Assembly (NCBI GenBank): GCA_025459425.1
Contig: JALOQF010000010.1
Location: forward strand, 1-59,063
Direction: 5' to 3'
Source of the DNA: Myxococcaceae bacterium
Lineage (GTDB): Bacteria; Myxococcota; Myxococcia; Myxococcales; Myxococcaceae
DNA: 59,063 nucleotides
Positions within the stretch are counted from its first letter, which is position 1; every line of letters starts with the position of its first letter. The position numbers and the translations under genes are program-made. Shown here piece by piece: positions 49,925-55,163 of this stretch. Below the pieces are notes generated by a model, which did no database searches, was not told the DNA's origin, and saw only the letters and a program-made list of their open reading frames with translations.

Positions 49925-50338
49925 TCACTTCTTGCCGGCGCCGAGGCCCATCTTCTTGTCCATCTCGGCGGCCTCCCTGGCGTCGGCGTCTTGCTGCGCG
50001 CTGGGCGCGGCGCCCGGCTTCTTCGCGGCCTCGGCCTTCGGCTCGAGCGCCTTCTTCTTCGCGTCCACCGCGGCGCGCTCGTCGGCGTTCATCGTGGCCG
50101 TGGCGCGGGCCCACTCGGCCTGCTTGACGCCGCGCGCCTCGAGCACCGCGCGCTCGGCAGCGGCCGTCTCCTTCATGCGCGCACGCACGTCGCCTGGCGC
50201 CGTCTTGCCCTTGTACTTCTCTTCGACGGCGGCGACGGCCTTCGCCTGCTCCTGCTGAATGGCCGCGATGTCGTCGGGCGTCAGCTGCGCGAGGGCGGGA
50301 GCGGCGACGAGGAGCGACACCAGCAGGGCACGGCGCAT
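49925..50338 (-). CDS. Small exported charged protein at the end of the FtsH-like operon
   Basis: This gene codes for 137 residues from ATG 50338. A signal peptide MRRALLVSLLVAAPALAQ is followed by a highly charged helical protein (VAAVEEKYKGKTAPGDVR, MKETAAAERAVLE) with a Lys/Ala-rich tail. No catalytic motif is visible. It is 29 bases downstream of the 87-residue gene in the same strand run. It may be an unrelated downstream gene or a periplasmic partner; the sequence does not decide. Confidence 0.7.
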   Translation of the reverse strand: MRRALLVSLLVAAPALAQLTPDDIAAIQQEQAKAVAAVEEKYKGKTAPGDVRARMKETAAAERAVLEARGVKQAEWARATATMNADERAAVDAKKKALEPKAEAAKKPGAAPSAQQDADAREAAEMDKKMGLGAGKK

Positions 50339-50367
50339 GGGCAGACCTCCGAATGGGAGCCCGAAGT

Positions 50368-50631
50368 CTACCCCGGCTGCGCCTGGAGCCACGCCACCAG
50401 CGCGGCGTTCTGCGTGGTAGCCAGCAGCGGGTCCTTCGCGCGCGCGTCGGCCTGGGCGAGCCAGTCCGTCACGACGGGCGGCAGCGCCAGGTTCGCGTCG
50501 CGGGCGCGGCGCACCACCGTCTGCGCCTCGAGGTAGAACTGGTTGAGCGCCAGGCGGTCGCCGATGGGCAGGCGGAACAGGTTGGTCAGGTCGCGCTTGA
50601 GCGCCGACAGGTCGTAGACGAGCTGGGCCAT
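50368..50631 (-). CDS. Small protein of the FtsH-like operon
   Basis: This gene codes for 87 residues from ATG 50631, starting five bases after the preceding stop. The sequence is helical (VYDLSALKRDLTNLFRLP, QFYLEAQTVVRRARD, VVTDWLAQADARAKD). No homologous family is recognised. It is tightly packed behind the AAA+ protease and its 88-residue partner, so it is probably an accessory or substrate-adaptor subunit. Confidence 0.7.
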   Translation of the reverse strand: MAQLVYDLSALKRDLTNLFRLPIGDRLALNQFYLEAQTVVRRARDANLALPPVVTDWLAQADARAKDPLLATTQNAALVAWLQAQPG

Positions 50632-50636
50632 GTGCC

Positions 50637-50903
50637 TCACCCCTTGTTCGCCGCCGCTTCCTTCTGGGCGGGCGCGGCCTGGGGGTTCTCCTTCACCGCG
50701 GCGCCCTGCCCCTCGCGCTCGATGACGAGCGTGCCGAGCTCTTCGGGCGTCACGGTGCCGCCCGCGATGAGGGCCTCGAGGAGCCGCTTGTGCTGCTCCT
50801 CGTGCTCCGCGGGCAACGAGTCCGAGTCGCTCTCGTACTTGACCCACACGTTCTTCTTCTTCGTCACCGGGTCGATCTCGAGGCGCAGGATGAGGGTGGC
50901 CAT
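50637..50903 (-). CDS. Small protein with DUF2997-like strand-helix layout
   Basis: This gene codes for 88 residues. The first half (TLILRLEIDPVTKKKNVWV then LPAEHEEQHKRLLEAL) follows the 'x-EIDP-x-T-x-V' strand pair plus helix seen in DUF2997-type mini-proteins, which in cyanobacteria and other bacteria occur beside AAA+ ATPases. The C-terminus is an Ala/Gln/Lys tail. An AAGGAG site overlaps the upstream stop. It lies 15 bases after the FtsH-like gene. Confidence 0.65.
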   Translation of the reverse strand: MATLILRLEIDPVTKKKNVWVKYESDSDSLPAEHEEQHKRLLEALIAGGTVTPEELGTLVIEREGQGAAVKENPQAAPAQKEAAANKG

Positions 50904-50918
50904 GATGGGAGGACTCCT

Positions 50919-53033
50919 TCAGCGGTCGGACGGCACCGGGTTCTTCTTCTCGACCTTCGGCAGCACCGAGGCCAGCGCTTCCTTGTCGAGCACCTTCTTC
51001 TCGAGCACGAGGTCTCGCAGCGTCTGCACCAGGCCGCGGTTCTCGTCGAGAATGGTGCGCGCGCGCTGACGCTGCTCCTCGAGGATCTGCTTCACCGACT
51101 CTTCCATCGCCGCCAGCGCCTTGTCCGAGATGGGCTCGCGCTCGTCGGTCTCGAAGCGCCGCACGCCCACGGCCTCACCGCCCATGCCGAACTCTTCGAC
51201 GAGGGCGCGGGCGATGGCGGTGGCCCGGTCGAGGTCGGCGGCGCTGCCGATCGACAGGTCTTCGAGGAAGAGCAGCTCGGCCTCACGGCCCCCGAAGAGG
51301 GTGCAGATCTGATCGAGCAGCTGCCCGCGGGTGACGACGTAGCGGCTGGCCGGCTCGGAGTAGCTGACGAAGCCCAGCGCCCCCACCAGGTCGGAGCGGA
51401 TGCTGATGCGCTCGATGGCGGGCGAGTTGGGCGTGAAGAGCGCCGCGACGGCGTGACCAGCCTCGTGGGTGGCGATGACGCGCTCTTCGCGCGGCGTGAG
51501 GTTGGGCCGCTCGTTGTAGCTCGACAGCGTGCGCTCGATGTCGTCCAGCTCGGTGGGCCCGGTCTTCTTCTCGCGCAGGCGCATGCGGGCGAGCGCGCGG
51601 CAGATGGCCTGAATGTGATCGCCCGAGTGCCGCGAGTTGGTTCCCTCGACGAAGTCGCCGGTCTTCTTCACCAGCCACTCGAGGCCACGGTCCGAGAGCT
51701 GGAGCCCCAGCTTCTGGTCGTAGATGCGAATGATGGCGCGCCGATCTTCGGCGTTGGGGAACGGAATGTGGAGGTGGAACTCGAAGCGGCCCGGCCGCAG
51801 CAGCGCCGGGTCGAGCGACTCGACGAAGTTGGTGGTGCCGACGACGAAGACCAGCTCGTCCTTGCGGAAGCCGTCCATCTCGGTGAGCAGCTGGTTCACC
51901 ATCGAGTGCTCGACGCCCGAGCCCTGGTAGGTACCGCGCGCCGTGGCGAACGAGTCGAGCTCGTCGAACACGATGATGCTGGGCGCGGCCTGGCGGGCGC
52001 GGGTGAAGACCTGCCGCAGGTTCTCTTCCGACTCGCCGACCCACTTCGACTTGAGCTCGGGCCCGCTCACCACCGTGACGGCCGCGCCCAACGAGGTGGC
52101 CATGGCCTTGGCGAAGAGCGTCTTGCCGGTGCCCGGTGGGCCCCAGAAGATCATGCCGCGCGGAATGAGGCCCTCGACGGCCTTCATCTGCGCCTCGTCG
52201 GCGGCCGCGTCCTTCAACGCGAGCACGTCGAGGATCTCCTTCTGGAGGCGCTCCTTCACCTTGGCGTAGCCGCCGATGTCCTTCTCGAGGTCGACGTCGG
52301 GCAACGTGAGCTGGCCCACCAGCGTCGCCTGGCGCAGCTGCCGCTCGGCGGGCTTCGGATCAGACGGGTAGTCTTCACCCGAGAGCGTCGACAGCAGCCG
52401 CCGCAGGCGCACGGCGTTGACGCCCGAGACGTGCTTGTACAGCTGGTAGCCCTTGAGGGCGCGCGCGTTCGAGAGCTTGCGCGACTCGCGCTGGGTGACG
52501 AGGTGCCGTAGCCGCTCGCGGGGCACGCCGAGCAGGTGCTCGCGCCGGGGGAAGAGGTTCTCGATCACCTTCGGCAGCGGAAACGACGGGTCCTTGAAGC
52601 CGAGGAAGACGAGCTCGGGGTTCTCGTACAGGAGCGGAATCACCTCGCGCGCCTCGCTGGTGAGGCCGCCCACGCTCGTGGTGAGCAGGTCGAGGTGGGG
52701 CAGCACCAGCACCCGCTCGTTCACCGCGCCGCGCACGGCCTCGCGCAGGTAGAAGACGATGGTCGCCACCAGGCCCATGCCCGGCTGCAGCGCTGGCAGC
52801 TCGGGAATCGGGCGGCCGTCGAGGTAGAGGAACGAGCGGCCCTCTTTCTTCAGCCGGTCACGCACTGCCTTGTACAGGTACGGCGTCAGCTCCTTCTCGC
52901 CCTCGACGAGCACCGGCAGCCCCGAGCGCAGGGCGTCGGTGACGCGGGTGATCTCGGCGGGGTAGGCCGCCTCGACGGCGGCGAACGGCGTGAGCTCGAC
53001 GGGGAGCTGATCTTCGGGAACCAGGAGAGACAC
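50919..53033 (-). CDS. Soluble AAA+ protease, Cdc48-like ATPase fused to FtsH-type M41 peptidase
   Basis: This gene codes for 704 residues with no membrane helix. Residues about 30-215 look like a degenerate AAA domain: GLPVLVEGEKELTPYLY lacks the Walker Lys, but VLVLPHLDLL resembles Walker B. The active AAA domain has Walker A FWGPPGTGKT (296-305), WVGESEENLR pore loop (331-340, the Cdc48/p97 form rather than FtsH FVGVGA), Walker B IIVFDELDS (353-361) and arginine fingers in DPALLRPGRF. The M41 zinc site is HEAGH (523-527) with Asp600 in SIGSAADLDRAT. It is a cytosolic ATP-dependent protease; targets are unknown. Confidence 0.9.
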   Translation of the reverse strand: MSLLVPEDQLPVELTPFAAVEAAYPAEITRVTDALRSGLPVLVEGEKELTPYLYKAVRDRLKKEGRSFLYLDGRPIPELPALQPGMGLVATIVFYLREAVRGAVNERVLVLPHLDLLTTSVGGLTSEAREVIPLLYENPELVFLGFKDPSFPLPKVIENLFPRREHLLGVPRERLRHLVTQRESRKLSNARALKGYQLYKHVSGVNAVRLRRLLSTLSGEDYPSDPKPAERQLRQATLVGQLTLPDVDLEKDIGGYAKVKERLQKEILDVLALKDAAADEAQMKAVEGLIPRGMIFWGPPGTGKTLFAKAMATSLGAAVTVVSGPELKSKWVGESEENLRQVFTRARQAAPSIIVFDELDSFATARGTYQGSGVEHSMVNQLLTEMDGFRKDELVFVVGTTNFVESLDPALLRPGRFEFHLHIPFPNAEDRRAIIRIYDQKLGLQLSDRGLEWLVKKTGDFVEGTNSRHSGDHIQAICRALARMRLREKKTGPTELDDIERTLSSYNERPNLTPREERVIATHEAGHAVAALFTPNSPAIERISIRSDLVGALGFVSYSEPASRYVVTRGQLLDQICTLFGGREAELLFLEDLSIGSAADLDRATAIARALVEEFGMGGEAVGVRRFETDEREPISDKALAAMEESVKQILEEQRQRARTILDENRGLVQTLRDLVLEKKVLDKEALASVLPKVEKKNPVPSDR

Positions 53034-53054
53034 GTCACGACTCCAGGGGCGTCG

Positions 53055-53615
53055 TCAGACGCGCACCTTGATGGTGAGGCCGCCATTGGCGTCCTCGTGG
53101 ACTTCTTCGACCTGGCCCAGCTCGGCGGCGCGCGTCTTCAGCGCGGTCGCAGTGACCCGGTTCACCACGCCGTCGAGCTCGCCCTTGAGATCCTTCAGCG
53201 TGCCCTCGAGCTGCTGCGTCACCTTCTTGCGCAGCGCCTCTTCTTCGGCCTTCGCCTCGCGCTTGAGGGCCTCCTGGGCCACGCGGCGCAGCGCCGCCTC
53301 ACGCTCGTCCTTCTGGAGCTGGTCGACGACCGCGGTGCGCTCGGTCTCGAGCTTCACGTCCTGGTGGCCCTCGACGGTGGCCGACACCTGACCGGTCTCG
53401 AGATCGACCTCGACCTCGACGCCGTTGGCTTCCTTGCGGCGGGCGAGCGAGCCGTCGCGCTCGAAGCCGCGCTGCGCGAGCTCCTGGGCCAGCAGGTCGC
53501 GCATGCGCTCCTTCTGGAGAATCGGCAGCAGCTCGAGCGTCGAGCTCACCCCGTCTTCGACCTGCACGTGGTGGGACAACGACTCCTTGATCGAGATTCG
53601 GTACGCGCGGCTCAT
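53055..53615 (-). CDS. Accessory protein upstream of the AAA+ protease
   Basis: This gene codes for 186 residues from ATG 53615; upstream in-frame sequence is not protein-like. The N-terminus contains a small strand-rich part (ANGVEVEVDLETGQVSATVEG) with the 'VDLETGQV' turn seen in DUF2997-like proteins. The centre is a long helix (REAALRRVAQEALKREAKAE). The C-terminus (VVNRVTATALKTRAAELGQV ... GGLTIKVRV) resembles the end of DUF1257/Ycf35-type proteins. It begins the five-gene operon, 21 bases before the protease gene. I infer a substrate-recognition or regulatory role. Confidence 0.7.
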   Translation of the reverse strand: MSRAYRISIKESLSHHVQVEDGVSSTLELLPILQKERMRDLLAQELAQRGFERDGSLARRKEANGVEVEVDLETGQVSATVEGHQDVKLETERTAVVDQLQKDEREAALRRVAQEALKREAKAEEEALRKKVTQQLEGTLKDLKGELDGVVNRVTATALKTRAAELGQVEEVHEDANGGLTIKVRV

Positions 53616-53728
53616 GGTGGTAGCGGAGCACAGCTCACGGCCGACATCCACGCGCGCAACCCAATCGCCCTGACCGCCGCGAACGGGGCAGTTGCTTTCG
53701 GGCAGGGCCCGCGTCATCCATCGCTTTC

Positions 53729-54133
53729 GTGTGGCTCGCCCTCGCCGTCAGCGTCGTCGTCAGCGCGCCCCCGGCGCAGGGCCTGACCATTCGGGTGCCG
53801 AAGCCCGCGTCCTTCGGCGCGACCGCGGGTGAAGCGGACGCCGTGCAGAACGCCGTCAAGGCCGAGCTCGAGGCCGAGGGCTACGCGGTGGTGACGGGCC
53901 CGGAAGACAAGACGATCGCCGCGGTCATCTCGGGCACGCTGACCCGCGTCGGCGGCGGGTACATTCTCAACCTGTCCATCATTCGCCAGAATGACGGCCG
54001 GGTGCTCGACCAGGTGCGCGAAGAAGCGAAGACGACGGCCGACCTGGCGCGCGCGAGCACCACCATCGCCAAACAGCTGGCCTCGGCGCTCCGGCAGGCG
54101 ATGGGCGTGCGCGCGAAGGTCAAGGTGAAATGA
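53729..54133 (+). CDS. Small exported protein of unknown function
   Basis: This gene codes for 134 residues from GTG 53729. A short hydrophobic start (LALAVSVVVSAPPAQG) is likely a signal peptide. The mature part reads as strand-helix-strand (ADAVQNAVKAELEAEGYAVV, TIAAVISGTLTRVGGGYIL) and ends in a basic tail. The pattern resembles the CsgG-like or DUF-type 'ISG-x-L' domains used to assemble envelope complexes, but no family is certain. It precedes the 342-residue gene by one base. Confidence 0.6.
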   Translation: MWLALAVSVVVSAPPAQGLTIRVPKPASFGATAGEADAVQNAVKAELEAEGYAVVTGPEDKTIAAVISGTLTRVGGGYILNLSIIRQNDGRVLDQVREEAKTTADLARASTTIAKQLASALRQAMGVRAKVKVK

Positions 54134-54134
54134 C

Positions 54135-55163
54135 ATGACGGCTCCGGCCCGCTTCCGACGACGCACGCAGGCGCCCCGCACCGACTCGATTCTCTGGCGT
54201 GCCCAGCTCGCGACCGCGATGGCGACGAAGAACCCTTCGGCGCTCGAGAAGGCCCTCGAGGGGCTGCCGCTGGTGGGCGACGTCGACGGCCGGCGGTTGC
54301 TGCCGACGGCGCAGGTGAACGACCCGACCTTCGGCGCCTCGGCGGGAGTTCCCTTCGCGCTCGAGATCGACGTCGACGACGTGCGCGAGGCCCCGGCCGA
54401 CGTCGGCCAGAAGGTCGACCAGGTCTTCTTCCCCAACGCGCCGCGGCTGCTGTTCAACGTGTGCTTCTCGTGCGGCGCGCCGAAGGGCGTCTTGCGCGAG
54501 GGCACCTACGGCGACCCGACGAGCCCCTGGTTCAACGTCTTCTTCGGCTACTACCAGATCGACGTCATCGCCTCGGAGTGGGGCCGGCCCTTCGGCTACC
54601 AGGACACCTCGAGCGGCGCGGTGAACACCGACGACGTGCTGCGCATCGGCAAGGCCGACTGGAACTACTTCTCGAACTGGATGTACGGCGTGCCGGAGCG
54701 CGCCATCGCGCCCCACAACACCCTCGACGGCGCGCGCATCGAGGTCGGCCCCCGCGAGCGCATCGGCCAGAAGCAGTGGGACGTGCTGAACATCTCGCAG
54801 GCGCGCATGGTGAGCGCCTACGTGTCGGGCAAGCCGACCGACCCGAAGCTCGAGGAGCGCGGCCCCTACTCGTTCCTCTGGCGCATGGCCTTCGGCTGCC
54901 CGAAGAGCCGCCCCGAGCACCCCGAGCTGTCGAGCTTCTTCCCCGTCGACATGACCGCGACGCTCTTCATGACGTTCCGCGAGGTGAAGAGCGACCCGTA
55001 CACGGGGAAGGACGTGTTCCAGACGTTCCTCTTCGGCGGCACGGTGAACGAGTGGTGGCAGGCGACGTTCGGCCAGCTCGGAGACAACCGCCGGCTGCTG
55101 GGCCTGCAGCTCGACGCGGTGAAGCGCGTCATCGTCGATGCGTACCCCGACCTGGGGTTCTGA
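54135..55163 (+). CDS. Conserved-looking protein of unknown function
   Basis: This gene codes for 342 residues without a signal peptide or membrane segment. It contains a CxxC block (LFNVCFSCGAPKG), Trp/Tyr-rich segments (DWNYFSNWMYGVPERAI, NEWWQATFGQLG) and an Arg-rich N-terminus. No catalytic motif is recognised. Its ATG follows the stop of the 134-residue gene by one base, so the two are cotranscribed and possibly functionally linked. Confidence 0.7.
   Translation: MTAPARFRRRTQAPRTDSILWRAQLATAMATKNPSALEKALEGLPLVGDVDGRRLLPTAQVNDPTFGASAGVPFALEIDVDDVREAPADVGQKVDQVFFPNAPRLLFNVCFSCGAPKGVLREGTYGDPTSPWFNVFFGYYQIDVIASEWGRPFGYQDTSSGAVNTDDVLRIGKADWNYFSNWMYGVPERAIAPHNTLDGARIEVGPRERIGQKQWDVLNISQARMVSAYVSGKPTDPKLEERGPYSFLWRMAFGCPKSRPEHPELSSFFPVDMTATLFMTFREVKSDPYTGKDVFQTFLFGGTVNEWWQATFGQLGDNRRLLGLQLDAVKRVIVDAYPDLGF

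What the first reader, a model, noticed from the sequence alone, without database searches (positions are those of the whole stretch)
49925..53615. Five-gene operon around a soluble Cdc48/FtsH hybrid protease with mini-protein partners
Seen: one minus-strand run of five genes with gaps of 21, 15, 5 and 29 bases. The central protein lacks membrane helices, carries a degenerate AAA domain before an active one, uses a p97-type pore loop (WVGESE) and yet ends in an M41 zinc peptidase (HEAGH, Asp600). Known: classical FtsH is membrane-anchored with an FVGVGA pore loop. Two flanking small proteins show DUF2997-like strand pairs, and the first also has a Ycf35-like end. Inference: a dedicated ATP-dependent proteolysis system with its own adaptors. 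It may be related to the FtsH-containing ternary conflict systems proposed from comparative genomics, a link I recall but cannot check here.
Basis: partly seen in the sequence, partly recalled or inferred. Interest (0 to 1): 0.75.

Follow-up and report, generated by a model that had tools for sequence, protein, structure and literature searches.

The report
Core of a known bacterial FtsH system
The five-gene run contains the three core genes of an already predicted but never tested bacterial machine (the FtsH-type MoxR-vWA 'ternary' system), built round a soluble protein-shredding ATPase that is half Cdc48 and half FtsH; in this genome the machine's other genes are intact but scattered over three other contigs.

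Summary
Gaps of 21, 15, 5 and 29 bases, the degenerate-then-active AAA pair, the WVGESE pore loop and an intact HEAGH/Asp600 peptidase are all confirmed. It is not a new kind of system. The first, second and third genes are fvmX5 (Pfam E 9e-45), the AAA-M41 protein and fvmX3-analog (E 1e-25) of the FtsH-type MoxR-vWA ternary system of Kaur et al. 2020 (PMC7159879), in its simple radical-SAM subtype. Its DUF2997/Ycf35 reading is not supported by profile comparison.

New here: (1) This genome has the whole system, but on four contigs (radical SAM+X6; X5-AAA-X3a; X7+MoxR; vWA). (2) In 96 Myxococcaceae genomes the parts are kept or lost together (48/49, 48/49, 47/49 with X5; 0/47 without), and scattering recurs in another family. 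(3) The ATPase half is a Cdc48-like D1-D2 tandem, and the peptidase is intact in Myxococcota and Planctomycetota but absent from five relatives elsewhere. (4) The peptidase domain has moved between lineages independently of the ATPase. (5) The fourth gene is a lineage-specific accessory; the fifth does not belong. Function is untested; regulated proteolysis by a soluble hexamer is most likely.

The parts
53055..53615 (-). fvmX5 protein (186 aa), first core gene
   Evidence: Pfam PF20003 E 9.2e-45; homologue beside the AAA-M41 gene in Myxococcota and Planctomycetota; start MSRAYRI set by homologues; predicted fold b-a-b4-long helix-b2, pLDDT 79
50919..53033 (-). Soluble tandem-AAA plus M41 zinc peptidase (704 aa), the 'FtsH' component
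   Evidence: Pfam AAA E 2e-42 and Peptidase_M41 E 2e-33; model pLDDT 84 aligns to FtsH/AFG3L2 (241-698) and to Rix7/p97/Cdc48 D1-D2 (17-507)
52314..52985 (-). Degenerate first AAA domain (residues 17-240)
   Evidence: no P-loop (VLVEGEKELTP where a Walker A is expected); D1-like in VIA alignment
51513..52298 (-). Active AAA domain (residues 246-507), Cdc48-like
   Evidence: CDC48 model 196.5 bits against FtsH_fam 153.5 for this domain alone; Walker A/B, sensor N402 and R413/R416 invariant
50967..51497 (-). M41 peptidase domain with HEAGH (51453-51467) and Asp600
   Evidence: PF01434; ligands conserved in 15/15 M41-bearing sequences
50637..50903 (-). fvmX3-analog protein (88 aa), third core gene
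   Evidence: Pfam PF20002 E 1.1e-25; conserved downstream of the protease
50368..50631 (-). Small accessory protein 'G4' (87 aa), no known family
   Evidence: no Pfam/NCBIfam/PADLOC match; next to X3-analog in three genera only
49925..50338 (-). Signal-peptide protein 'G5'; probably not part of the system
   Evidence: no homologue beside the operon in any relative examined
53616..53728 (.). Divergent intergenic region that should hold the operon promoter
   Evidence: position only; next gene (53729-54133, +) runs the other way

Best explanation
The window carries the protease core of an FtsH-type MoxR-vWA ternary (fvm) system of the simple, radical-SAM subtype. Shown by sequence and model: the central protein is a soluble, Cdc48-like tandem AAA with an inactive first and an active second domain, fused to an intact M41 zinc peptidase. 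X5 and X3-analog are its conserved neighbours. X6, a radical SAM enzyme, X7, MoxR and a divergent vWA protein make up the rest and are encoded on three other contigs. Inferred: the protein forms a hexamer whose inactive D1 ring is a scaffold, whose D2 ring threads substrate through the WVG pore loop and whose M41 ring cuts it. X5 and X3-analog act as adaptor or gating subunits. The MoxR-vWA-X7 arm captures or remodels a target and hands it on, or releases the protease. X6 and the radical SAM enzyme modify a component. The outcome is conditional destruction of specific proteins, probably in a stress or invader response.
For: Family matches for X5 and X3-analog in the window and for X6, X7, MoxR and ivWA with its helical N-terminus in the same genome. 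Compact operon radSAM-X6-X5-AAA/M41-X3a-X7-MoxR-ivWA in genus g20. Near-perfect co-occurrence across 96 genomes, kept after independent scattering in family f25. Catalytic residues invariant. Structural match to FtsH/AFG3L2 and to p97/Rix7/Cdc48. Single-copy, mostly vertical descent (Mantel r 0.89 with canonical FtsH).
Against: No experiment on any member was found. Hexamer formation, the roles of X5 and X3-analog and any substrate are inferred. Relatives without M41 show that proteolysis is not essential to every ternary system. The genome is a draft, so some separation could be assembly error, although X7 and ivWA lie inside their contigs.
Confidence: 0.75

Rival explanations
1. It is an anti-invader (conflict) system as Kaur et al. 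propose: the MoxR-vWA pair sets a threshold and the protease acts on invader or host proteins to contain phage. (A question of purpose, compatible with the best explanation of the machinery.)
For: Published inference from gene context and enrichment in multicellular bacteria; the peptidase domain is exchanged between lineages while the ATPase half is not, as expected if its target specificity is contested.
Against: Single copy, mostly vertical, in all 27 sampled genomes of g20; X5 not found on any of 72,556 plasmid records; no PADLOC match beyond generic AAA models.
Confidence: 0.4
2. It is a chromosomal housekeeping or developmental protein-quality machine, like Cdc48 plus a built-in protease, with no role in immunity. 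(Also compatible with the best explanation of the machinery.)
For: Vertical inheritance, single copy, slow divergence (mean protein distance 0.27 against 0.21 for canonical FtsH), retention of all parts after scattering.
Against: Missing from 15 of 26 Myxococcaceae genera, so not universally needed; exchange of the M41 domain.
Confidence: 0.4
3. The protease is an ordinary FtsH that lost its membrane anchor, with unrelated neighbours.
For: Best full-length NCBIfam hit is FtsH_fam (269 bits).
Against: 269 bits is far under the 600 cut-off; the genome has a canonical FtsH besides; the ATPase half is Cdc48-like and tandem; partners conserved across phyla.
Confidence: 0.03
4. In this genome the system is a decaying remnant, broken up and losing function.
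For: Parts on four contigs; X6 and X7 at about 50% and 44% identity to homologues in other genera.
Against: All parts are open frames with family matches, and the catalytic residues of the protease are intact; parts are kept together in related genomes; independent scattering in f25.
Confidence: 0.05

Closest known systems
FtsH-type MoxR-vWA ternary system (fvm), simple subtype (Kaur et al. 2020, PMC7159879)
   Same: X5, X3-analog, tandem AAA with inactive first domain, X6, X7, MoxR, ivWA with helical N-terminus, stand-alone radical SAM
   Different: Here scattered over four contigs; extra small gene G4. The published main text calls the FtsH a chaperone and does not mention M41.
Classical membrane FtsH / AFG3L2 / YME1
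   Same: M41 domain with HEAGH and third ligand Asp, fused after an AAA domain
   Different: No membrane anchor, an extra inactive AAA, Cdc48-like pore loop WVGESE and AAA domain
Cdc48 / p97 / Rix7
   Same: D1-D2 tandem AAA arrangement, pore loop, best-scoring AAA model
   Different: D1 lacks the P-loop; carries its own peptidase; the aligned range starts at D1, so no Cdc48 N-domain
Ycf46 - Ycf35 (DUF1257) - DUF2997 module of other Myxococcota
   Same: Tandem AAA with a degenerate first half plus two small proteins of similar strand/helix order
   Different: No detectable sequence relation of the small proteins; no M41; zinc-finger or FHA neighbours instead of MoxR-vWA

Membership tests
FtsH-type MoxR-vWA ternary system | FtsH component with two AAA domains, the first inactive | tested here: met
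FtsH-type MoxR-vWA ternary system | MoxR AAA present | tested here: met
   In the same genome (C275), next to X7; bpMoxR E 2.7e-59; not at the window locus
FtsH-type MoxR-vWA ternary system | Divergent vWA (ivWA) present | tested here: met
   In the same genome (C352); ivWA E 4e-31, with ivWA-helical_N at its cut-off (27.1 against 27 bits)
FtsH-type MoxR-vWA ternary system | All three core genes in one neighbourhood | tested here: not met
   Not in this genome; met in g20, g7 and g17 relatives. Gene proximity is how the systems were found, not part of the proposed mechanism
FtsH ternary, simple subtype | Stand-alone radical SAM and vWA fused to a helical domain | tested here: met
FtsH ternary, simple subtype | No Ubl-conjugation genes (mark of the complex subtype) | not tested
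   Ubl genes were not searched for genome-wide; none seen in the stretches read
Classical FtsH | Membrane anchor and FVGVGA-type pore loop | tested here: not met
Classical FtsH | Scores over the FtsH equivalog cut-off | tested here: not met
   269 against 600 bits
DUF1257/Ycf35 | Profile similarity of X5 | tested here: not met
   Pfam none at E up to 1; hhalign 1.2%; only a similar order of strands and helices
DUF2997 | Profile similarity of X3-analog or X5 | tested here: not met
Conflict/defence system | Protects against an invader | not testable with these tools
   needs phage challenge

The most novel reading that the evidence does not exclude
The fvm core triad (X5, tandem AAA, X3-analog) and the Ycf35 - Ycf46 - DUF2997 triad found in other Myxococcota (its AAA and Ycf35 parts are also plastid and cyanobacterial genes) are branches of one ancient AAA machine; the myxobacterial branch gained a peptidase that is exchanged between lineages as a cassette and joined a MoxR-vWA switch. 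This would tie orphan plastid genes to a predicted conflict system.
Probability: 0.18. Interest if true: 0.75.

Novelty: new member of a known kind. Interest (0 to 1): 0.48.

Why it matters
No FtsH-type ternary system has been tested in any paper I could find. This shows that the myxobacterial and planctomycete branch is a soluble Cdc48-like unfoldase with its own intact protease, so it can be assayed for proteolysis and not only for chaperone action. It also shows that its parts are kept or lost together even when scattered, which is strong evidence that they work together. The exchange of the peptidase domain between lineages gives a direct test of whether target specificity is under conflict-type selection.

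Tried and rejected
DUF2997/Ycf35 identity of the small proteins: rejected at profile level, kept only as a weak topological lead; the profiles were thin (Neff 2-4), so a very distant relation could be missed. One first DUF1257 alignment (A5) mixed in wrong strands and was replaced. G5 as a member: rejected, no conserved homologue beside the operon. G4 as a fragment of X7: a G4 profile hits nothing but G4 itself in the loci searched. Homology of the degenerate N-terminal AAA to the Ycf46 N-terminus on its own: not detectable. X5 has no PDB match at E below 0.001, with a model of only moderate confidence (pLDDT 79, pTM 0.59). Window M41 as a recent import: the larger tree shows that the window has the ancestral type and five genus-mates the derived one. 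Paper searches found no experiment on an FtsH ternary system; the library holds open-licence papers only.

Full report
What was claimed and what is there. The five minus-strand genes, their gaps (21, 15, 5, 29 bases) and the motifs in the central protein are as described. The conserved core is the first three genes, not five.

Identity. Pfam gives the answer directly: gene 1 is fvmX5 (PF20003, E 9.2e-45), gene 3 is fvmX3-analog (PF20002, E 1.1e-25), and gene 2 is AAA plus Peptidase_M41. Pfam describes these families as domains of the FtsH ternary system, the class inferred from gene context by Kaur and co-workers (PMC7159879). Two AAA domains with the first inactive are that paper's stated mark of the FtsH component.

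Where the rest of the system is. In members of genus g20, and in g7 and g17, the operon reads radical SAM - X6 - X5 - AAA/M41 - X3-analog - X7 - MoxR - ivWA, or the stretch of it that was held. The window contig has only X5 - AAA/M41 - X3-analog - G4. The same genome has radical SAM-X6 on C439, X7-MoxR on C275 and ivWA on C352, with family matches for X6, X7, MoxR and ivWA, including the helical N-terminus that marks the simple subtype. X7-MoxR and ivWA sit inside their contigs, so contig ends do not explain their separation. In a genus-mate (G151) all parts lie within about 27 kb of one contig.

Kept or lost together. Of 96 Myxococcaceae genomes, 49 have X5; of these 48 have X7, 48 have X6 and 47 have ivWA. 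Of the 47 without X5, none has any of the three (Fisher p about 1e-25, which ignores relatedness). Presence is spread over 11 of 26 genera, and two of those genera contain a genome that lacks all four. In a different family (f25) the AAA/M41 gene lies apart from X5 in all three genomes, an independent scattering; X3-analog and X7 were found beside each other in two of them. Co-retention without linkage argues for a shared function. Inheritance is mostly vertical: distances of the protease correlate with those of canonical FtsH (Mantel r 0.89, 11 genomes). X5 has no match on 72,556 plasmid records.

The protease. The AAA domain alone scores best against CDC48 (196.5 bits, FtsH 153.5), while the C-terminal part matches only FtsH. 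The predicted model (mean pLDDT 84) aligns over residues 17-507 with D1-D2 tandems of Rix7, p97, Cdc48 and Drg1 (Z about 23, 380-450 residues, rmsd 5-11) and over 241-698 with FtsH and AFG3L2 (Z about 24, 430-436 residues, rmsd 5.8-6.8). It is therefore a structural hybrid: a Cdc48-like tandem motor with a built-in M41 protease. It has no membrane helix, and the genome has a canonical FtsH besides. The zinc ligands and ATPase residues are invariant in all 15 aligned M41-bearing sequences from Myxococcota and Planctomycetota. Five more distant relatives (Dactylosporangium, Acrocarpospora, Frankia, a Chloroflexaceae MAG and a proteobacterial MAG) match only up to about residue 440-500 and have no M41 domain in the fetched DNA. 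The published main text treats the component as a chaperone and never mentions M41. The present branch should be a true protease.

An exchanged peptidase domain. Within Myxococcaceae the M41 domain comes in two types. Type B (...GDLAGALGFVSYSEP..., found in the window, g20, g7 and most genera) is also the type of most planctomycete and distant myxococcotal sequences. Type A (...GDFTA--GYVRHAE...) lacks two residues of the (A/S)LG stretch that follows the HEAGH helix. The window protein differs from its genus-mates by 5-12% in the N and AAA parts but 39-40% in M41, and only 16% from another genus in M41. The switch lies near codon 480-500. Trees conflict: the N+AAA part rejects the type A grouping (AU p 7e-6), while M41 rejects monophyly of g1 (p 7e-5) and of g4 (p 2e-54). 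The wider tree makes type B ancestral and type A a derived domain shared by parts of g1, g4 and g26. So it is the genus-mates, not the window, that carry the exchanged domain. Why is unknown; contested target specificity is one reading.

The small proteins. X5 and X3-analog were read as DUF2997/Ycf35-like. Pfam and profile-profile comparison do not support that. The predicted X5 fold (strand, helix, strands, one 68-residue helix, two strands; pLDDT 79) has a similar order of elements to DUF1257 as read by eye from its sequence, and other Myxococcota do carry a Ycf46-like AAA - DUF1257 - DUF2997-like triad (only DUF1257 was found there by a family model, the other two names are read by eye). 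That is a lead, not a result. G4 (87 aa) is conserved beside X3-analog in genera g1, g4 and g26 only. It may be a local subunit.

Mechanism. Shown: composition, catalytic integrity, architecture, co-retention. Inferred: hexameric soluble unfoldase-protease, X5 and X3-analog as adaptor or gating subunits, MoxR-vWA-X7 as the switch that captures or remodels a target, X6 plus radical SAM as a modifying pair. Whether it serves immunity or protein quality control cannot be decided from sequence. Published context favours immunity; single copy and vertical descent favour a resident cellular function. I hold these at even odds.

Verdict. It is a member of a known, untested system class, with new information on completeness, catalytic capacity and domain exchange. 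The genera are numbered, not named, by the tools; naming g20 as Myxococcus would be my inference from genome size and number of species.

Noticed in passing
Related loci L040, L041, L042, L043, L045-L047, L181, L182; window 50919-51530: Two divergent types of the M41 domain, exchanged between lineages independently of the N and AAA parts (topology tests significant).
   Followed up: yes
L034 1-881, L038 17041-18001, L094 17999-19357 (also L036, L037, L039): A WGR-domain protein (Pfam E 7e-20) lies just past ivWA in the compact operons of g20 and g7 and in a distant Myxococcales MAG; possible further component, WGR is not mentioned in the 2020 paper.
   Followed up: partly
L237 1708-3762, L236 8516-10870: A protein kinase gene sits directly upstream of the AAA-M41 gene in two genomes of family f25.
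   Followed up: partly
L104-L108: AAA relatives in Actinobacteria, Chloroflexi and one proteobacterial MAG lack the M41 domain; MoxR follows the gene in at least L104 and L107.
   Followed up: partly
L165, L167, L170-L172: Ycf46-like tandem AAA - DUF1257 (Ycf35) - DUF2997-like triads in other Myxococcota, with a zinc-finger or FHA-like neighbour; no DUF1257 in the Myxococcaceae genomes sampled.
   Followed up: partly
L051 139-1064 (G068:C215): A second, divergent X5 - X3-analog pair in one genome, at a contig edge, without the AAA-M41 gene in view.
   Followed up: no
window 53729-55163: Two divergently transcribed genes (134 and 342 aa, no clear family) were found next to X5 only within the window's genus.
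   Followed up: partly
phage records: FtsH-like AAA-M41 genes are annotated in several giant Pseudomonas phages and a Microcystis phage; about 30% identical and covering only the AAA-M41 part.
   Followed up: no
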